Positions 1-10,084 of a stretch of 64,000 bases of DNA are shown in pieces. Below the pieces are notes generated by a model. It did no database searches. It was not told the origin of the DNA and saw nothing but the letters and a program-made list of their open reading frames with translations. The position numbers and the translations under genes are program-made. Origin of the DNA: Thermoplasmata archaeon (GTDB lineage: Archaea; Thermoplasmatota; Thermoplasmata; Lutacidiplasmatales; UBA184); the NCBI GenBank assembly GCA_021844945.1, contig JAKBSJ010000005.1:1-64000 (forward strand), in the 5' to 3' direction. The stretch's first letter is position 1, and each line of letters opens with the position of its first letter.

Positions 1-243
1 CGGGCCTCCTGTAACAAGTGGGGCAACCATGCCAGAAGCACCCGTCGACAAACACGGCGACTCGCCGAACTCTACTCCCGAAATCGGGCCGGCCGGGGAG
101 GTCGGTAAGCTGCGTTCTATATCGACCGCCGAGGCTCCATACGGCCTTTCGAAGCTTCACTTCAATAGGGGTGTCTTTCCTACGGACTCGAGCCATTCTG
201 GCTGACGTGAATCGATTTGTTGTCCATTTGGCGCTCCGTTTGG

Positions 244-738
244 TCATACTAAACGCAGCTTGAGAGACGCGCGCTTAAGAGCACGGGGAACCGATATGAG
301 AGGTCGGACCTCGATTGGGCCTTCCAGGAGGACTCCGAGCTCCAAGTTCTCCACAAGGTTTTCGTAAATCAGATTCGCAGACCCGAGAATCGCTCGCTCG
401 TTGTCTGCCAGGAAGAGCTTGCAGTGGAATCCCCGGTGTTCGTCTCCACCCGGCGTCCCGACGTACTCGTAGATACTCCATCCACTTCGCTTCGCCACGT
501 CGGCTAACCCCTTCGGAGCCTTGCGAGTATAGATTTCCCAGTCGGCAGTTCGTGGAGTTCTGTTGTACGCGGCCTTGAGGACGTCGACCCCGGTAGAATC
601 GATGAAGGGACAAACGAGCTGCAACGCATGCTTGGCCCCGGAAAGTAGATGCTCGAGTTCGAGGAGATAGTCCCCCGACCCTCGTGGCGGAAGCCCGCGG
701 AGCGACGGGTCTAAGGGATGTGTGAAAAGCAACCGCAT
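244..738 (-). CDS. drmC: PLD-family protein, DrmC-like (DISARM)
   Basis: HKD motif HCKLFLADNERAILGSANL typical of phospholipase D-like proteins; last gene of a tight operon after DrmA/DrmB-like genes. Confidence 0.7.
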   Translation of the reverse strand: MRLLFTHPLDPSLRGLPPRGSGDYLLELEHLLSGAKHALQLVCPFIDSTGVDVLKAAYNRTPRTADWEIYTRKAPKGLADVAKRSGWSIYEYVGTPGGDEHRGFHCKLFLADNERAILGSANLIYENLVENLELGVLLEGPIEVRPLISVPRALKRASLKLRLV

Positions 739-742
739 GGCT

Positions 743-2686
743 TCAAGTCCAGAATCCCCCGTCCCTGACGAGGAGACGGCGGTTTAGAGTGCGATTGAAA
801 CTGCTGCAGCTGGTCTCAGCTAACTGCACGCAGCCGTGGCACGATCCGTTCCGCTCCTCACAAACCGGGTTGTAGACGCATCTCAGTGCATCCTCGCGTA
901 ATCCCCTCAAGACAGTCGCCAGGTGAAACTCGAAGAGGAGTTGAAGTCCGCCAAGAGTGAAGTCTCCGCTGTGGTTTGCGTAGATCAGGAGGCTGTTCGT
1001 GTAGGGCAGTATGTCCTCACTGATCCCTTCCTGTTCCAATCCCGTGACTCGACCAGCGCCCTTGATAAGGAGATGGCTAATCGTGTGGAGCAGTCCAAAG
1101 TGCCTCTGGGTCCAGGAATCATCGAACGCTCCGAACAAACCCCTGGCGCCGGCGACGTAAGCCCGCTGTAGGCAAGCCAAGTCCCCTGCAAAGCTTCCAG
1201 TTGGAGCGACTTGCTCGGCCACTCCCAAATTGAGCCAACCAAGGGTAGCCGTCGGGTCCAGTTGGATCCAGATTCCTTCTGTGGTGGAACGTGCGACATA
1301 TACGTCGATTCCTCGGCTTCGGTCTGGTCGGATGAAAAGGTTCAGCTTGGCCTCAGAGGGTTCGTAGGATCCCCGCGTGAAACCAATCAGGGCGGAAGTG
1401 AATGGGATTCTTTCCTGATGGCGGACATCTGCGAAGTGGAGTTCGCGCACTATGTGTGAAGCCCGAGCAAGATCCTCAGCATGGTCCCTGTCTTCACCGA
1501 CCTGGCCCGCAAGATCTTGTAGGCCGATACCACGTGTGGCATCCATGTACAACGCCGTGTCTCGGATCTGACGCGCGTAGTCGGGTCGTCGGGTTGCTTC
1601 GATAAGGTCGCGATAGCTCACAGCCGCGCCAGTCGGTCGTTGACTCTCCGCAATCTGCCTGTCGATGTTCTCCAGAATCCTACGGCGTTGCGCGTCCTCT
1701 GGTAGGTGCTCTGCAAGGTATTGCCTCTGCTCTAGGAGTTCAGCGACGGTGAGTCCCCCGGAACCTCGCTCTTCGGCGTCGGCAGAGAATCCCTGGCTCC
1801 AATGATCGAATCCAGAGTACGGATCGAAGTTCCGGAATGCGCCGCCATCTCTGAGGCATCCCGCGGCGGCGATGGCCGCCTGGCGAGTGCCCGCTACCAC
1901 CTGGTCGAGGCTGTCGTCACTGTTTAGCAGATTCACCACCTTCGCCATGTAGTGCGTGGCCTTCATGAAGGGGAAAGTTCCGTAATCAGAGCGGTATGTG
2001 TCGGTCCACTCGACGATTCCGTCGAGCGGACAACCGAAATGACGCCTAAAAAACGCGTCTCGAGCTTGCCACGAGGTGTCGCACCCGTCCACCATGCATG
2101 CTAGCCTCCACCGGGCCGCTCGCTCACTTCCCTGGCGATACCAATGAATGTGAGTGGCGCCATGCCGCGGGCACCTGATGTTAGGCCCGCTAGGCGCGAA
2201 AATTTCGTCGCCGCAGTAGTGCGTGGTCAGCACGTCGTATTGAACCAATGGTCCTCCACAGTGCCCTCCAGTCGAGACACATGTGCATAGACGATCGGGC
2301 GGGACGTGACGCTCAAGGAACTGGATCGGGGTGAGGCGTGATATCCCTCGAACCTCTGACGGAGGGGGATATAGGTGGCCACACTGCTGACAGTAGAAAC
2401 AAGTGGGGTAAGGGCTCGACTCGACCCGATCTGGTTGGACGACGTGGATTTCGGTATGGTCGACTTGCCGCTCTTCGAGATCGGCCAGAGGATAACTCAT
2501 AATCTGGCTGCGGAGTAAGCTCTTCAGCTGTTCGCGATTGATTCGGATATCGGGAGTCCCTGGATCCTGTCGTATTGCAATAACGCGCTCGATAAGGCCG
2601 GAATGTTCGTGCCTAAATACCTTACCTGGGCCGTAGCGATAGAGGACGTGACTTCGCCCTCGTAAGATCGGTCGAACCTCGGTCAT
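743..2686 (-). CDS. drmB: DUF1998-containing protein, DrmB-like (DISARM)
   Basis: Cys-rich motifs CFYCQQCGHLYPP and C-terminal CNPVCEERNGSCHGCVQLAETSCSSFNRTLNRRLL (DUF1998 type); start overlaps the stop of the DrmA-like gene. Confidence 0.78.
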   Translation of the reverse strand: MTEVRPILRGRSHVLYRYGPGKVFRHEHSGLIERVIAIRQDPGTPDIRINREQLKSLLRSQIMSYPLADLEERQVDHTEIHVVQPDRVESSPYPTCFYCQQCGHLYPPPSEVRGISRLTPIQFLERHVPPDRLCTCVSTGGHCGGPLVQYDVLTTHYCGDEIFAPSGPNIRCPRHGATHIHWYRQGSERAARWRLACMVDGCDTSWQARDAFFRRHFGCPLDGIVEWTDTYRSDYGTFPFMKATHYMAKVVNLLNSDDSLDQVVAGTRQAAIAAAGCLRDGGAFRNFDPYSGFDHWSQGFSADAEERGSGGLTVAELLEQRQYLAEHLPEDAQRRRILENIDRQIAESQRPTGAAVSYRDLIEATRRPDYARQIRDTALYMDATRGIGLQDLAGQVGEDRDHAEDLARASHIVRELHFADVRHQERIPFTSALIGFTRGSYEPSEAKLNLFIRPDRSRGIDVYVARSTTEGIWIQLDPTATLGWLNLGVAEQVAPTGSFAGDLACLQRAYVAGARGLFGAFDDSWTQRHFGLLHTISHLLIKGAGRVTGLEQEGISEDILPYTNSLLIYANHSGDFTLGGLQLLFEFHLATVLRGLREDALRCVYNPVCEERNGSCHGCVQLAETSCSSFNRTLNRRLLVRDGGFWT

Positions 2687-5600
2687 TCGTCCATATCCTC
2701 CTCGACGCGATTGCCCAGGGAGCCGGGGCTAAAAATTGGGATCGCGACGTCGGTGTCGCGGAGACTGTTCAGAGCATCGAGGCGGGCTTTGGCGGTACGC
2801 TCTTCTCTCGGATGATGCGGACGACGCTGTAGCTCTGATCGAATGTTCCCGATGAGGTCCTCGACTGTCTCAGATTGTCGACGGACGAGCATGCCGTCGC
2901 CTGCCGGAGCAGTCGGAATCCCAAGCGATCTACGAACGGCGTCCACGAAAGTGGCAGGGTCTGCGCGGATCTCGGCGAGCAGGCCGTCAACCGTGGTCTT
3001 CTGCCAGACGTCGAGGTACGGGAATTCATAGTTTACGTATTGCAGAACCAGTCCGGGGGTCGTCCTCTCGAGGGCCTGGCGGCTAAACCGAGTGGTTGGG
3101 ATGTTCCTGATCAGAATGCTTCGAAAATCCAAGAATTTGGAGTGAGATTCGAAATAAGAGGAATCCCGCTCGCGATTCGGGTTGTACACGTTCACGACTA
3201 TGGCCGGGACCCCATCTCGTCTCCCGACCCTGCTCATCACCTGAATGTACTCGGAAACGGTGTGCGGCATGCCGCGGAAGACGAGGAAATTGAGATCGTC
3301 AAGGTCTACTCCATGACTGATGATGCTCGTCGCAGTCACAGCCTGGATGTACCCTTCGTCCTGCCCGCTTTCTATGGTCTCGAGGAATTTCTGTACCTTA
3401 CCGATCCATAGATCCCCCGTCAGATTCAGCACTCGCTCGGGTTCGAACGGCGGGTATCCGTCCCGTTGCATGTAGGGGTTCAGCTGGCCCACGTAAGACC
3501 CATTGACTTGAGTTACCTCGTTGCGCGAAATTCCATAGGTCACCGCGGTCCGGTATCGACGCGCAAATGACTGACGATCTCGATCTGTCAGTCCTTGCAA
3601 AGGCCCTGGTAGTGGTATCGGCTCTGAGCACCCAGTCGGGTCCGCGGCTGGGGCGACAATTTTGTGGTAAGTTAAGAGAATCTTCATCACGGTGTCGACG
3701 TGGCTAAGCCCGTGACTTCGTACGCCTAGCACAAATCGCTGGGGTTCCTCCGTCTCCTCGGAATAGAAGGATTCGGTCGACGTGGGTCCGGGACTCGGAA
3801 AGCGAATTGCATCGTCACGGTTGTAGAGCTGTCGAACCAGCTGCCGGTACCCTTCGATCGTCGCGGTAGATCCGACGATTTTCCAGGGGCCTCCTCCGAG
3901 TCCGGTGGCTCGCCGACGTCGTGCCGTTTCGATCAGCATGGTTTCGTAATGGCTCGCAAACGCACCGAGAGATTCGGTTAGAAGGTGGAGTTCATCCTGC
4001 ACTAACAAACCCGGCAGCGGATCGACGTTTGGTGGACAGTGGGTCAATGTCTCGGTGCAATCTAGCACAGGACACGTTCCCGACTCTCTTCCATCAGGGT
4101 CGACGGGCATAGCGATCAGGTAGCCGTGTATCCGGCATTGCGCGGTGGCTCCACCGAAGAGCGACCTCCCCCAAGGCTCGGTGGCCAATCGGGCTAACTT
4201 GTCGATAGTGGCGATCACCAACGTCGGTAGACGGCGAAAGACCTCCGTATCCGTGAGGTAGAGGTGAAGGTCCCGGCCACAGTCTCGGCATCGATGTCGG
4301 AACCCAACCACGGATCTGTCAAAGGTCGTCTCGATGCGCCCGGGAAACCCATCCGGCCGAACGCAGATTGGGCAACTTGGCACCTTGTTGTGTCGATGGA
4401 CCTCCCACGCGAGCCGGGATTGGCTCTCAAGGATCGGAGCGAATTCAGGAGTCCACCTACTATGCCTGCTAGATCGGTCAGGTGAAACTGGAAAATCCAA
4501 AAGGTTGAGCGTGTTACCTTTCCCGGCGTAATATCCCACACTGAAGGGGTCACCCCGCCGGCCGTCGAGCTCCGGCGCGCTTCTTCGGAGATCCTCGGCC
4601 TGTTCCATCACGCCAGTAACTCGCGAGAACTGTTGCAAGCTCAGCATTCTGAGAGGGAATTTCGCGAACGCGGTGACACCGAACGGCTTTCCCCTCAACC
4701 GATCCCAAAATGCATGGAGCACAACGAGACCGAGATAGGCTTCCGTCTTTCCGCCCCCGGTCGGGAACCACAGAACCGTCGGCGGCGGTTCTTGGCTCCG
4801 CGTATCAGTCCGCAAAAGAAGGTCTCCGAGTTGGCTAACAATAAAGACAATCTGAAAAGTTCGCCAGCCAGGGGTATCCGCAGGTTCCGGGTTACCCGCG
4901 TGACCCCGCGCTGCGCGCAACTCCCTGAGATGCGCGAAACGACGATCGAATGCACGATTCATCAGGCGAAAGGCGGCCAATAGATCCGAGTGCCTTGGAT
5001 CCTCCAAGATTGCCAGGCCTCTGGCAAACCTGGCGAGTTCTGAGGCAAACTCGACCCTCCCAATCTCTACTCGCTCTGGATTTGAGTCAGCGCCTTCTAC
5101 CGTCAGTGCGCGTGCGTTCCAGGACTCTAGGTAGTCCTCCATCAGGCTAAGGGTATCTCGTAATATTGGAATCGCGGCCTCCCCCGAGAGAGCATCAAAA
5201 GCGTGAGTAACTGTCCGTCCATCTCTCATAGCGAGAGGTCGAGAGCGGAGGCGCATCTGAACGAACAATGGTACGGATTCCGTTGAAATCCGAAGGCGAT
5301 CTACCTCGAATCCGACGACGGAATCGCAGTTTCGTCCGGATGCCCAAGTCCAGGGCTGAAGCCTGTAATCTCGCGCTTCAGCTTCCGGCAAATGTATCCG
5401 AGCGAAACAACTTCTGTCGCCCGAAATTGTGAGTCTAACGTCGATAAATGTCGACTCCTCAACCCACCGAGTCTTTTTGCCCGTGTTGCAGACAAGAATC
5501 TCTATCGACCAACCATCGTTCACCTGACGTATTCTGTACTTGATTCGTCCCGACCATGCCGGTTCGGCCGGTCGTGTGCATTGCTGAACTCGAGTTTGCC

Positions 5601-6204
5601 AGGCAGTCGGGTCGCGGAGCTCTGCAACCCGGAAGACCTTCGTATGTCCAGTCCGTTGTTCTCTCGGAGCTATGCGATAGAGGTCAGCGTCCGATAGAGC
5701 TCGGCCCCTGGCTGCATCCAGTTCGCGCTGCAGAGCCTCGGATGCGACTCCGAGGTCTTCGAACCCATCCGTGGGCGCTAGCCTCATGCGAACGTGGGGT
5801 AGATCGAGTTCCAGGGCGATCCTTCGGTACTTTGGTGGGAGTTTAACGTCGGTCCCTTGGGCGAACCTCTCAACGAAACGCACAACCTCGGCGTGACTGG
5901 GCATCACCGGGTAGTACAATGAAAGCGAGAGATGGAAGTCAAGGTCGAGTTCCCCCTCGGCCGCCGACTTGATGAGTAATCCCAAGGCGGAGGGCATGTA
6001 CTCGGTGCGCCCAAACTCTTCCTCGAGTTCGGTGACTAGCTGACGTTCGTCCGCCGGAAACAGCGCCCCGCACGGGAACAAGTTCTGGGGCATGTCTTCG
6101 AGTACCTCATCGAACTCCCTCCCTCTTCCCTCCATCGCGTTCCGGATGGCTCCGACGCAGTGCTGGACGAAGTCGAGTCGAGTGGGGGGATCGTCAGCTA
6201 CCAT
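2683..6204 (-). CDS. drmA: SF2 helicase, DrmA-like (DISARM)
   Basis: Walker A-like WFPTGGGKTEAYLGL, QDELHLL, and C-terminal helicase motif ATSIISHGVDLDDLNFLVFRGMPHTVSEYIQVMSRVGRRDG; 1173 aa. Confidence 0.82.
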   Translation of the reverse strand: MVADDPPTRLDFVQHCVGAIRNAMEGRGREFDEVLEDMPQNLFPCGALFPADERQLVTELEEEFGRTEYMPSALGLLIKSAAEGELDLDFHLSLSLYYPVMPSHAEVVRFVERFAQGTDVKLPPKYRRIALELDLPHVRMRLAPTDGFEDLGVASEALQRELDAARGRALSDADLYRIAPREQRTGHTKVFRVAELRDPTAWQTRVQQCTRPAEPAWSGRIKYRIRQVNDGWSIEILVCNTGKKTRWVEESTFIDVRLTISGDRSCFARIHLPEAEARDYRLQPWTWASGRNCDSVVGFEVDRLRISTESVPLFVQMRLRSRPLAMRDGRTVTHAFDALSGEAAIPILRDTLSLMEDYLESWNARALTVEGADSNPERVEIGRVEFASELARFARGLAILEDPRHSDLLAAFRLMNRAFDRRFAHLRELRAARGHAGNPEPADTPGWRTFQIVFIVSQLGDLLLRTDTRSQEPPPTVLWFPTGGGKTEAYLGLVVLHAFWDRLRGKPFGVTAFAKFPLRMLSLQQFSRVTGVMEQAEDLRRSAPELDGRRGDPFSVGYYAGKGNTLNLLDFPVSPDRSSRHSRWTPEFAPILESQSRLAWEVHRHNKVPSCPICVRPDGFPGRIETTFDRSVVGFRHRCRDCGRDLHLYLTDTEVFRRLPTLVIATIDKLARLATEPWGRSLFGGATAQCRIHGYLIAMPVDPDGRESGTCPVLDCTETLTHCPPNVDPLPGLLVQDELHLLTESLGAFASHYETMLIETARRRRATGLGGGPWKIVGSTATIEGYRQLVRQLYNRDDAIRFPSPGPTSTESFYSEETEEPQRFVLGVRSHGLSHVDTVMKILLTYHKIVAPAADPTGCSEPIPLPGPLQGLTDRDRQSFARRYRTAVTYGISRNEVTQVNGSYVGQLNPYMQRDGYPPFEPERVLNLTGDLWIGKVQKFLETIESGQDEGYIQAVTATSIISHGVDLDDLNFLVFRGMPHTVSEYIQVMSRVGRRDGVPAIVVNVYNPNRERDSSYFESHSKFLDFRSILIRNIPTTRFSRQALERTTPGLVLQYVNYEFPYLDVWQKTTVDGLLAEIRADPATFVDAVRRSLGIPTAPAGDGMLVRRQSETVEDLIGNIRSELQRRPHHPREERTAKARLDALNSLRDTDVAIPIFSPGSLGNRVEEDMDE

Positions 6205-8359
6205 GCTCAGCAGTCACCTTGGTCACCGTGTCGAATCGCACGACAGAGGCCAAATCTTCGATCGAAATGCCCTCGGGCCGATCCTCGTTCTCATCTGCTA
6301 CTGCCTTCCCTAGGATCTCATCTAGACGTCCCGTCGCCAGACGGAACAGGAAGTCATAGATAATGCGGCGGTCGTGGCGGTGATCGACAGCGGCCGCGTA
6401 GATGAGATCGACAACGTTGGACGAATAGCCAAGAGAACGTAGGAGAAGAACCAGGTGTTCTCTCCGAGGAGCAACGGGATCGTCTTCCTTGAGCCAAAGG
6501 CGAAACTCGGAGTACGTCACTCCGGTTTCGAGTCGGCGATAGATCTCGACTACTGGTGCGTCCCCAAACGTCTTGGCAACGTATTGACGGAGGAACTGGC
6601 GCCAAGTACCGGCGACGATTCGAGTCCTCTCCATCAGCGGGTTTCGGCGGCAGATTCGTGCGACAACCTCGTGGGCTGAAGGATCGCCCCCGCCTCTCGG
6701 AGCCACGAGGACATCTCCGACCTGGATACCTGAGCACTCGATCTCCCTGAACGACCTTCCGCGCATGACAACGACAATACGCTCTGGGGGAAACGAAAAC
6801 CCGCCCGCCGGAGTTTCGACTGATACCCTTGGTCCGTGATTCTCAGTTTCGAGCGGAGCGGGCAACTCCCCGGTTTCGATCGGCTCCTCGACTTCCTGGC
6901 TTCTCCACTCAATCGTCCGAGGTCTTGGCACGAGAGTTGAGCTGGAAGCTGTTGGAAGCGGCCGTATCGTTGGTGCCATCGGAATTCGTGGCCAATCCGT
7001 TATGCCGAAGCGTTGTGCGGCTTCCTGCAGTCGTTTCCTCGCGGAGTTGTAGACGCTCGCTTCCCATGGATAAAGAAGAAGTACGGTGTGGCGAACCGAG
7101 CCAGAAGATAGTTGCTGCAGTACCCTTGCCCCTGGCGCGGCGGAAACTACTACCCCTCTCGGTCGAGGGCGACGAAGTGTTGAGACTGTATCAACGGTAA
7201 CTCTTGTGTGCGGAGGACCTGGCCAATGGGAAGCGAACTCTCGCCCGCGAGCCGCGTTGAACTCGCCATCGACTAGAATGGCAGGGGAATCCGCCTCCTC
7301 AAACAGAGCTCGCCGACTCTCAATCCAGTTGAGCTTTGGCGGCGCGTAGTTTTGTCTTCGAACCAGAAGCATCCGCGCATAGCCAATGAAGTCCTGGGTC
7401 TCGGGGACAGGCGGAGCGTTGCCGGTTCGGTAAAGGAACGTGAGAAAGTCCAGAAGGCCCTCGTCGCTGGTGCCAAGCCCGGTTTGCGACTCACCTTCAG
7501 GTGGGAAGACATCGGCTGCGAGTCTCCAGAGCAGCGTCTTCGAGATACCGAGGAACGTACTCCACCGTTGCCACCTCCCTACGGAAAGCCTTCGGAACAC
7601 GTCTCCGAGCTGGGTAAGCTCGTCCTCCGGGGGTTCCACGATTTGTACGTTCCAGCGGTGTTGCACTAGGTTGCTCTCCTGGCAACCTAGTCGTTCCACG
7701 ATCACAGGAGCTGGTGTCGTTGCGGTGCATTCGGCCGAAGTTGGGAGGGTCAGTTCGCAAGGACGGCGAATTCGTTCCACAGAGGTGAGGTCTCCAGTCA
7801 AGACACCCCTGAGCACGACGTGGCTACGTTGTGGTCGGGGAACCGAAACATCAGATGGGTCGGACACCATGTAGAGCACTGGGCTCCGGGGCGAGCGACG
7901 AATCCAGAACTCCAGGTCCTCCGCGGTGAACGCCCTGAAGAATCCTCGACTCGGAACAAAGGAGCGGATTGGCACCCGACGCCTTCCATGTGGAATTGTG
8001 TCGCCCACTCCTCTGTAGTACATGGGATAAGTCGCGGCCCAAGTCCCCATGACGGGCTCCTTCAGAGCAAAGTACGACCGTGTGAAATCGGGATCCGTAG
8101 AGAGTAGGATCAGGCATTCCGAGCCGCTGAGACTCATGACGAGGTTTCTCACGACCAAGGCCGCGGCGAGACCAGAGAATCCGGGAGCGACCTGGTCCCT
8201 GGCTCCCTTATCGGAGAACGCGGCCCACGCCCGTCGAGTTACGACCAGGGTCCAGTTGGACACCGAATGACGAGTGTCGAATGGTTCACCCCTAATGCGA
8301 TAGGGAAGCGACCAACGGCGCTCCAAGAGACCGAGCTCCGTCAGAGAACGGCTTGACAT
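6194..8359 (-). CDS. Large protein of unknown function, possible DrmE-like DISARM component
   Basis: 721-aa uninterrupted ORF overlapping the start of the DrmA-like gene; no helicase or methylase motifs; position and size suit a class 2 DISARM DrmE-like protein (inference). Confidence 0.5.
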   Translation of the reverse strand: MSSRSLTELGLLERRWSLPYRIRGEPFDTRHSVSNWTLVVTRRAWAAFSDKGARDQVAPGFSGLAAALVVRNLVMSLSGSECLILLSTDPDFTRSYFALKEPVMGTWAATYPMYYRGVGDTIPHGRRRVPIRSFVPSRGFFRAFTAEDLEFWIRRSPRSPVLYMVSDPSDVSVPRPQRSHVVLRGVLTGDLTSVERIRRPCELTLPTSAECTATTPAPVIVERLGCQESNLVQHRWNVQIVEPPEDELTQLGDVFRRLSVGRWQRWSTFLGISKTLLWRLAADVFPPEGESQTGLGTSDEGLLDFLTFLYRTGNAPPVPETQDFIGYARMLLVRRQNYAPPKLNWIESRRALFEEADSPAILVDGEFNAARGREFASHWPGPPHTRVTVDTVSTLRRPRPRGVVVSAAPGARVLQQLSSGSVRHTVLLLYPWEASVYNSARKRLQEAAQRFGITDWPRIPMAPTIRPLPTASSSTLVPRPRTIEWRSQEVEEPIETGELPAPLETENHGPRVSVETPAGGFSFPPERIVVVMRGRSFREIECSGIQVGDVLVAPRGGGDPSAHEVVARICRRNPLMERTRIVAGTWRQFLRQYVAKTFGDAPVVEIYRRLETGVTYSEFRLWLKEDDPVAPRREHLVLLLRSLGYSSNVVDLIYAAAVDHRHDRRIIYDFLFRLATGRLDEILGKAVADENEDRPEGISIEDLASVVRFDTVTKVTAEHGS

Positions 8360-8559
8360 TAGGCACCAACAACGAACCGGATGACAAGAAGTAGCTCAAC
8401 ACATCTCTCGCCCAGCGCAACGCTGTGGACCCCCATACGAATCCTTGAACCAATCGAATGTGCCGTCATAGTCATGGTTTGAGCCGTTTCACCACCGCGT
8501 GCGGGTCGTAAACACCCGGGCTTGGCTTGGGTCAGCCGTGCCTGAGCGTAGGTTCTAGG

Positions 8560-8661
8560 CCGTATACGGGGCGGGTCCCTCCTCGGATCTCCTAATCCTC
8601 GCCGTGTCGGTTCGGTCCAACGACAAGTGCATCTGCTCGCGATATGCCCCGTAATACGGGG
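8560..8661. repeat. Two inverted-repeat sites upstream of the DISARM-like operon
   Basis: CCGTATACGG at 8560-8569 and CCCCGTA-A-TACGGGG at 8647-8661; an outer ATGCCCC/GGGGCAT pair at 8644-8650 and 8691-8697. Confidence 0.5.
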
Positions 8662-9132
8662 TACATGGTGTTCCGGGAAACCTATCGCAAGGGGCATCGG
8701 CAGTACCTCTACGAACGGGAATCCATCCGGCCTAGTTTAACAGACGCACTCACACCGACCGTGCGTCTCTCGGTCAACCATATCGTCTCCATTCAGTCTC
8801 CGTAGGTCGCTGACCACCTCGAATGGACCCTTCAGTGGGCTGGAATGGTGGAACTGCGTCTGTAGCTCATTGACGAGTAGGGTCCAAGAACATCCTCCTG
8901 TCTCAGCCGTTACGCCGGAACTCACCAACGACGCGCATCGATGGGAAGCAACCGCACTGACTAGAGATCAGACGGTATTCGAGGACCAGTCATCGATCGC
9001 GCAATTTCAATCAATATGCATCAAGTAGCACCCAGGTAACTCCTCGAAGAGGTCAGAGTGTGCTGGGACTAAGACCTGTTTCCTCAAGCCCCGGGGCGAA
9101 CGGCAGGTTAACATCGGCCACTTCGAGTCGCG

Positions 9133-9166
9133 CTCATCGCGGTCGCGTCATCGAACGCGCGGTCCC
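9133..9166. repeat. Imperfect direct repeat, copy 1
   Basis: ctcatcgcggtcgcgtcatcgaacgcgcggtccc, closely similar to 9669-9703. Confidence 0.5.
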
Positions 9167-9260
9167 TTCTTCAAGCTCGCGGTGAGCTTCGCTCACCGTC
9201 GTCCCTCTCCCGGACTCTCACCTGGGCAGGGGGCCGTTCGCCCGGCTCATCGTATGGGTC

Positions 9261-9544
9261 TGGTCAAGCTTTGCGCGGGCTCAGCTGGTGGAGTCTCCGA
9301 TTGGAGTAAACCCAGCTCCCGTCCAGAACGATCAACATGAACCCAGCGGTTCAGATGAGATAGATCGCAAGACCGGCCCCAAAGGACGTGGCGTAGTTCC
9401 CGGTCGAGGTGGCCCAGAAGCCAAGGCGGTGATAGCTGTTAACACGATGACGCCCACCACGACAATCGTGAGGTCGGCGCGGTAGTTACGGTTCCAGGAA
9501 GCGAGTAGGATCGGATCTGAGGCGGCCGCGTTTTGAGCAGCCAT
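9261..9544 (-). pseudogene. Relic small membrane protein (frameshift plus in-frame TGA)
   Basis: Frame 1 reads MAAQNAAASDPILLASWNRNYRADLTIVVVGVIVLTAITAL; it then continues in another frame as GFWATSTGNYATSFGAGLAIYLI*TAGFMLIVLDGSWVYSNRRLHQLSPRKA*. Confidence 0.5.
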
Positions 9545-9668
9545 GGACCCGTGTTTGATGGTGCTTCCGTGGACTTGTAGGTTCCTGCCGACGGGCGTGG
9601 ACGCGGACGACGCATGTGATGGCCCACGGCACTGGCCCCGTTGCTTTCAACATGGGTCAGCACCCACG

Positions 9669-9703
9669 CCCATCGCGGTCCCGTCATCGGACGCCCGCGT
9701 CCC
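9669..9703. repeat. Imperfect direct repeat, copy 2
   Basis: cccatcgcggtcccgtcatcggacgcccgcgtccc, matches 9133-9166 with a few substitutions. Confidence 0.5.
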
Positions 9704-10011
9704 ACATCAACGTCGCGCCGGCCTGCGGCCGCCGTCCCCTCGCTTCGCGCCGATGACCGCAATCAGCGCCGCCAGCGCGACGGAGAGCGATGGCCACGAG
9801 ATGGCGAACCCTTTCCCCGACCTGCCCGCGATTCACGGGTCCGACGCGAGCGCGCAGCCACCTCACTTTCGGAGGCCCGCCCCCTGGACGTATCTACTCC
9901 CCCGCTTCGGTGACTACTAGCGGACGCGGTTCGAGTCGCGGGCCGCGTTAGGAGGGCCAGGGAGGAGGGTAGTGCAACTTCGATCGAATCGGTACTACCC
10001 CTCGGGTTGGA

Positions 10012-10084
10012 TGGGCTCGGCCGGATTCGAACCGGCGATCTTCGCTGTGTGAGAGCGACGTCGTAACCGCTGGACCACGAGCCC
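10012..10084 (-). tRNA. tRNA-Val(CAC)
   Basis: Minus strand GGGCTCGTGGTCCAGCGGTTACGACGTCGCTCTCACACAGCGAAGATCGCCGGTTCGAATCCGGCCGAGCCCA folds as a cloverleaf; loop CTCACAC. Confidence 0.92.

What the first reader, a model, noticed from the sequence alone, without database searches (positions are those of the whole stretch)
244..8359. DISARM-like anti-phage operon in an archaeal chromosome with no methyltransferase in view
Seen: four tightly packed or overlapping minus-strand genes, a 721-aa unknown, a DrmA-like helicase, a DrmB/DUF1998 protein and a single-HKD PLD protein, in DNA visibly less GC-rich than the rest of the window. Established: the DISARM core is DrmA, DrmB and DrmC plus a class-specific DNA methyltransferase and DrmD or DrmE. 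Inference: this is a DISARM or DISARM-like island. The methylase is either just left of base 1 or absent, and absence would make this an atypical system that must separate self from non-self another way.
Basis: partly seen in the sequence, partly recalled or inferred. Interest (0 to 1): 0.78.

Follow-up and report, generated by a model that had tools for sequence, protein, structure and literature searches.

The report
Archaeal DISARM island cut by contig
This is a known type of virus-defence gene cluster (DISARM) in an archaeon of the Thermoplasmatota; the self-marking DNA methylase seems to be missing only because the assembled contig stops inside a repair gene that normally sits beside such a methylase.

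Summary
The four genes are real, intact and tightly packed. Profile searches make them drmE (divergent, found only with an iterated profile), drmA, drmB and a short single-HKD drmC, so the set matches class 2 DISARM. At 2-247 the operon continues, by an ATGA overlap with drmC, into vsr, a mismatch-repair endonuclease cut off by base 1. Base 1 of the window is also base 1 of contig C2 of an 87%-complete draft genome, so "no methyltransferase in view" is a property of the assembly. A cytosine-5 methylase lies in 15 of 16 surveyed DISARM loci with vsr, in one more from the same phylum, and directly beside both other vsr genes found in this genus. I therefore expect a DrmMII-like methylase just past the break. 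Two facts temper this: none is in the assembled genome, and among DrmE-bearing relatives such methylases are nearby in only a minority of loci. The low-GC island starts at the 3' end of a tRNA-Val gene. DISARM of this layout is already present in haloarchaea. Verdict: a new, divergent member of a known kind; the methylase-free idea is unsupported but not excluded.

The parts
6194..8359 (-). drmE, divergent, 721 aa; first gene of the operon
   Evidence: NCBIfam DrmE_fam 6.1e-5 over 534-716, below cut-off; iterated DrmE profile built without the window: 56.9 bits over 386-718 against 5.6 bits for the best of 1000 shuffles; position upstream of and overlapping drmA
2683..6204 (-). drmA, SF2 (YprA-family) helicase, 1173 aa; Walker A GGGKT, DELH and STAT motifs intact
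   Evidence: PADLOC DrmA 3.6e-97; NCBIfam DISARM_DrmAS 4.4e-95, below cut-off; PDB 7s9v DrmA 3.7e-46
2752..2754 (-). codon of DrmA Thr1151, the position that aligns with Serratia DrmA Val1296, the proposed DNA-methylation sensor
   Evidence: profile A2 aligns chain residue 1305 to profile position 1154; Thr1151 is profile position 1145; V or I in 54 of 62 DrmA rows with the motif
743..2686 (-). drmB, DUF1998-type partner, 647 aa, C-terminal four-cysteine motif intact
   Evidence: PADLOC DrmB 2.7e-41; PDB 7s9v DrmB 9.4e-10
244..738 (-). drmC, short PLD nuclease, 164 aa, one HKD motif (HxK...D...GSxN)
   Evidence: PADLOC DrmC 6e-13; Pfam PLDc_2 1.6e-8; a 156-aa DrmC occurs in L010
2..247 (-). 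vsr, 5' part (82 codons) of a very-short-patch-repair mismatch endonuclease, cut by the contig end; ATGA overlap with drmC
   Evidence: Pfam PF03852 2.3e-23; PDB 1cw0 E. coli Vsr 1.4e-9; no other Vsr piece in the assembly
1..1 (.). left end of contig C2: assembly break inside the operon
   Evidence: window = G000:C2:1-64000
10012..10084 (-). tRNA-Val (CAC); the island begins at its 3' end
   Evidence: ARAGORN; in most same-genus genomes homology to the right flank starts at about window 10006-10012
8360..10011 (.). low-GC stretch without recognisable genes between drmE and tRNA-Val
   Evidence: three ORFs tested, no Pfam match

Best explanation
A horizontally acquired, class-2-type DISARM operon (drmE-drmA-drmB-drmC-vsr) sits at the 3' end of a tRNA-Val gene in a Thermoplasmatota archaeon. 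It continues past the contig end, most likely into a cytosine-5 DNA methylase (DrmMII-like) beside vsr. Proposed mechanism: the methylase marks host DNA with 5mC. DrmA-DrmB loads on unmarked DNA with exposed single strands and is activated, and DrmE and the PLD nuclease DrmC assist. Vsr repairs T:G mismatches that arise when 5mC deaminates, and may penalise loss of the methylase. Shown here: gene identities, intact motifs, operon overlaps, the contig break, the insertion point and the vsr-methylase association. From literature on other DISARM and Vsr proteins: DrmAB activation and the Vsr role. Inferred: presence of the methylase and all function in this archaeon.
For: Gene identities. The contig starts at window base 1 and no other piece of vsr is in the assembly. 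Of 89 DrmA+DrmB loci, 16 have vsr; 15 of those have a cytosine-5 methylase, mostly directly adjacent, against 24 of 73 loci without vsr (Fisher p = 7e-6, inflated by relatedness). On the DrmA tree the vsr loci fall in six separate places, five of them with a cytosine-5 methylase. In same-phylum L137, vsr and the methylase overlap at their 3' ends, downstream of drmE-A-B. The only two other vsr genes in 78 same-genus genomes both touch a cytosine-5 methylase. Haloarchaea have the order drmE-A-B-C then a cytosine methylase. Type II DISARM is defined by DrmA, B, C, E and DrmMII (PMC9252829). DrmAB is repressed by methylation and prefers 5'-overhang DNA (PMC9142583). In Caulobacter a Vsr-like protein makes loss of a cytosine methylase costly (PMC12907096).
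Against: No methylase was seen: PF00145 is absent from the assembled 87% of the genome. In the DrmE-bearing survey loci with at least 3 kb on both sides, a cytosine-5 methylase is present in only 7 of 26. DrmA Thr1151 stands at the proposed methylation-sensor position, as in three loci (L058, L060, L064) with no cytosine-5 methylase found. DrmA is a long branch, at most about 32% identical to anything found, and DrmA, DrmB, DrmC and DrmE all score below NCBIfam cut-offs. Vsr can be unlinked to its methylase (PMC12907096).
Confidence: 0.7

Rival explanations
1. A DISARM-like system with no methylase of its own. DrmAB tells self from non-self by DNA structure (5'-overhang single strands, autoinhibitory loop) or by marks that unrelated host methylases make in trans; vsr is a leftover or a second nuclease.
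For: PF00145 absent from the assembly; many DrmE-bearing relatives have no cytosine-5 methylase within the fetched flanks, including loci on complete haloarchaeal plasmids (L021, L023, L026, L028); Thr1151 at the sensor position; the host carries N6_N4 methylase genes elsewhere; structure-based discrimination proposed for DrmAB (PMC9142583).
Against: A coupled vsr predicts a cytosine-5 methylase; the contig ends where the methylase would be; several relatives without a cytosine-5 methylase carry N4/N6 methylases instead.
Confidence: 0.17
2. The self mark comes from another kind of module beyond the break, as in relatives: an N4/N6 methylase, a BrxP/DndC-like PAPS reductase or a radical-SAM protein.
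For: N4/N6 methylases in L019, L063, L069, L071, L081; BrxP-like protein overlapping drmA in L068; radical-SAM protein right after DrmE in L009 and L085.
Against: None of these modules goes with vsr in the loci read; Vsr acts on products of 5mC (established for E. coli Vsr).
Confidence: 0.08
3. A decaying or non-functional DISARM remnant that keeps intact reading frames by chance.
For: About 1.6 kb without recognisable genes between drmE and tRNA-Val; no other same-genus genome searched has a DrmA match.
Against: Five adjoining frames without stops and with catalytic motifs intact.
Confidence: 0.05

Closest known systems
Class 2 (type II) DISARM: DrmA, DrmB, DrmC, DrmE, DrmMII
   Same: Four of five defining genes, operon order drmE-A-B-C, helicase and HKD motifs intact.
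   Different: DrmMII not seen (contig end); vsr in the operon; DrmE and DrmA very divergent; Thr at the proposed sensor position.
Haloarchaeal plasmid DISARM (Halobacterium sp. GSL-19 L022, Halorhabdus tiamatea L025)
   Same: Archaeal, drmE-A-B-C, DrmA about 30% identical.
   Different: These have a cytosine methylase next to drmC and no vsr; carried on plasmids.
Vsr plus cytosine-5 methylase pairs (E. coli dcm-vsr; vsr-methylase pairs in G025 and G038 of the same genus)
   Same: Vsr N-terminal half with the conserved PDF...DGCFWHGC stretch.
   Different: Here vsr is coupled to drmC and its partner, if any, lies beyond the contig.
ARMADA (DISARM-related, YprA helicase fused to a Vsr-type nuclease; PMC12458937)
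   Same: YprA-family helicase and a Vsr-type nuclease in one locus.
   Different: Here the helicase is split into DrmA and DrmB, Vsr is a separate gene, and DrmC and DrmE are present; none of the ArmA/ArmB-type genes is in view.

Membership tests
DISARM (core) | DrmA SF2 helicase | tested here: met
   PADLOC 3.6e-97; PDB 7s9v; below the NCBIfam equivalog cut-off
DISARM (core) | DrmB, DUF1998-type protein | tested here: met
   PADLOC 2.7e-41; 7s9v chain B
DISARM (core) | DrmC, PLD-family nuclease | tested here: met
   PADLOC 6e-13; HKD residues invariant in alignment A6
Class 2 DISARM | DrmE | tested here: met
   57 bits with an iterated profile, C-terminal half; weak with NCBIfam; no PADLOC hit; position fits
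Class 2 DISARM | DrmMII cytosine-5 methylase in the locus | tested here: inconclusive
   contig ends inside vsr; PF00145 absent from the assembled 87%; predicted from vsr
Class 1 DISARM | DrmD helicase and DrmMI adenine methylase | tested here: inconclusive
   neither lies between tRNA-Val and base 1; the left side is not visible
[quoted passage not shown]
   helicase and DUF1998 part are separate genes, Vsr is a separate gene, DrmC and DrmE present
DISARM (function) | protection against virus | not testable with these tools
   needs an experiment

The most novel reading that the evidence does not exclude
A DISARM whose operon truly lacks a methylase. It recognises self by DNA structure alone (DrmA with Thr instead of Val at the proposed methylation-sensor position) and uses Vsr as an additional nuclease.
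Probability: 0.08. Interest if true: 0.65.

Novelty: new member of a known kind. Interest (0 to 1): 0.3.

Why it matters
It places DISARM in a Thermoplasmatota chromosome and shows that the striking "no methylase" feature is best explained by a contig end. It also suggests that some DISARM loci carry their own repair gene (vsr) for the mutagenic side effect of 5mC marking. DrmE-bearing DISARM loci without a nearby cytosine-5 methylase appear common in the survey, so the question of how they avoid self-attack is better asked in complete genomes than here.

Tried and rejected
Reading "no methylase" as real absence: rejected because base 1 is a contig end. Continuing the operon on another contig: no other piece of vsr was found. 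Extension through viral contigs by an exact 30-mer: nothing. Single-protein scan of genome contigs with DrmA: no relative; the profile scan worked. Direct comparison of the 721-aa protein with a five-sequence haloarchaeal DrmE profile gave nothing; only the iterated profile was positive. A fold model of DrmE (pLDDT 61.5, pTM 0.46) matched SF2 helicases by Foldseek (best E 1.1e-7 but TM about 0.2) and the sequence has no Walker A motif; a degenerate helicase-like fold is possible, but the model is too weak to build on. ARMADA was considered because of Vsr and rejected on gene architecture. A motif search for N6 methylases in the survey missed annotated ones and was not used for counts. The only N6_Mtase (PF02384) hit in the host is below cut-off.

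Full report
What is there. The four minus-strand ORFs are present as described, without internal stops, and overlap or nearly touch. GC is 58.3% over the first 10 kb and 68.7% beyond; GC3 of the operon genes is 0.60-0.65 against 0.91 in a chromosomal neighbour. This fits horizontal acquisition.

Identity. DrmA, DrmB and DrmC models hit the second, third and fourth genes, and the best solved relatives of the first two are DrmA and DrmB of 7s9v. The 721-aa protein has no PADLOC or Pfam match and only a weak NCBIfam DrmE hit in its C-terminal part. A DrmE profile iterated on survey loci, without any window sequence, gives it 57 bits over residues 386-718; the best of 1000 shuffles gives 5.6. It is a divergent DrmE. 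All four score below NCBIfam cut-offs, so they are remote members.

The fifth gene. It is cut by base 1.

Why no methylase is in view. The window begins at base 1 of contig C2 of a 5-contig, 86.67%-complete genome. PF00145 has no hit in the assembled part, and no other piece of vsr is found in it. The genome does hold PF01555-type methylase genes elsewhere.

Insertion point. Homology with same-genus genomes starts at the 3' end of tRNA-Val at 10012. In three relatives, tRNA-Val lies 11.7-14 kb from a tRNA-Cys that is followed by a block syntenic with C4 7.4-20 kb of this genome. C4:1 and C2:1 therefore most likely face each other across a gap of unknown length in a variable inter-tRNA interval. 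No convincing attachment-site repeat was found in the visible part, and three ORFs tested in the 1.6 kb beside the tRNA have no Pfam match.

What vsr predicts. Ninety-two DrmA loci from genomes and plasmids were annotated with profiles. Of 89 with DrmB, 16 have vsr and 15 of these a cytosine-5 methylase, usually adjacent; of 73 without vsr, 24 have one (Fisher p = 7e-6). The loci are related, so the p-value is inflated. On the DrmA tree vsr loci sit in six separate places, five with the methylase (FastTree, with long branches, so placement of the window is unsure). Same-phylum L137 has drmE-A-B, then (past one opposite-strand gene) vsr whose 3' end overlaps the 3' end of a cytosine-5 methylase. 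The two other vsr genes in 78 same-genus genomes are both adjacent to one. In G062 the DISARM locus has DrmMII followed by a PADLOC 'type II nicking endonuclease' family protein, possibly a T:G mismatch enzyme (my inference).

What speaks the other way. Among DrmE-bearing survey loci, cytosine-5 methylases near DISARM are in the minority: 7 of 26 with 3 kb on both sides, though several carry N4/N6 methylases. DrmA Thr1151 aligns with Val1296 of Serratia DrmA, which the authors of PMC9142583 proposed as the methylation sensor and report in over 98% of the top homologues. The match of these two residues is read from the profile end points, because the printed alignment was cut short. Thr recurs in L058, L060 and L064, which have DrmA-DrmB with UvrD-type helicases (and NERD helicases in L058 and L064) and no cytosine-5 methylase found. 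Thr and Val are close in shape, so this alone does not show loss of sensing.

How it most likely works. From work on Serratia DISARM (PMC9142583), DrmAB is autoinhibited, binds DNA with a 5' overhang and is repressed by methylation; DrmC appears dispensable. I expect the same here, with a cytosine-5 mark. Vsr would repair deaminated 5mC and, as in Caulobacter (PMC12907096), make loss of the methylase costly. None of this has been tested in this organism.

Verdict. A divergent class-2-type DISARM with a vsr gene, truncated by the assembly: a new member of a known kind. Methylase-free DISARM is not shown here.

Noticed in passing
L068 7630-9210 (Candidatus Thermoplasmatota MAG; DrmA identical to L138 of G353): A PAPS-reductase protein similar to BrxP (4e-68), SspD and DndC overlaps the start of the drmA frame: a possible phosphorothioate-type mark joined to DISARM.
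   Followed up: partly
L009 6997-8229 and L085 9365-10660: Radical-SAM protein (with a B12-binding domain in L085) directly after drmE in archaeal DISARM loci without a cytosine-5 methylase.
   Followed up: partly
L058, L060, L064: DrmA-DrmB operons with UvrD-type helicase upstream and (L058, L064) NERD-helicase downstream, without detected DrmE, DrmC or cytosine-5 methylase; DrmA has SLRDT at the sensor motif, as in the window. L064 also has a DndB/DpdB-like protein.
   Followed up: partly
L057 5082-6947 and L059 4939-6855: GNAT plus ABC-ATPase fusion (mad3-like) directly upstream of drmE.
   Followed up: partly
L021 14700-16703 and L061 16239-18182: Pentapeptide-repeat protein directly after drmC in haloarchaeal DISARM.
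   Followed up: no
L010 6438-7121 (G062): PADLOC type II nicking-endonuclease family protein between drmMII and drmA, perhaps a T:G mismatch enzyme playing the part of vsr.
   Followed up: partly
window 10012-10084 and same-genus genomes: The tRNA-Cys to tRNA-Val interval is variable between species and several contigs end near it: a likely insertion hotspot.
   Followed up: partly
L011 4631-7999 (right end of contig C1): Long repetitive, probably secreted repeat protein running off the contig end.
   Followed up: no
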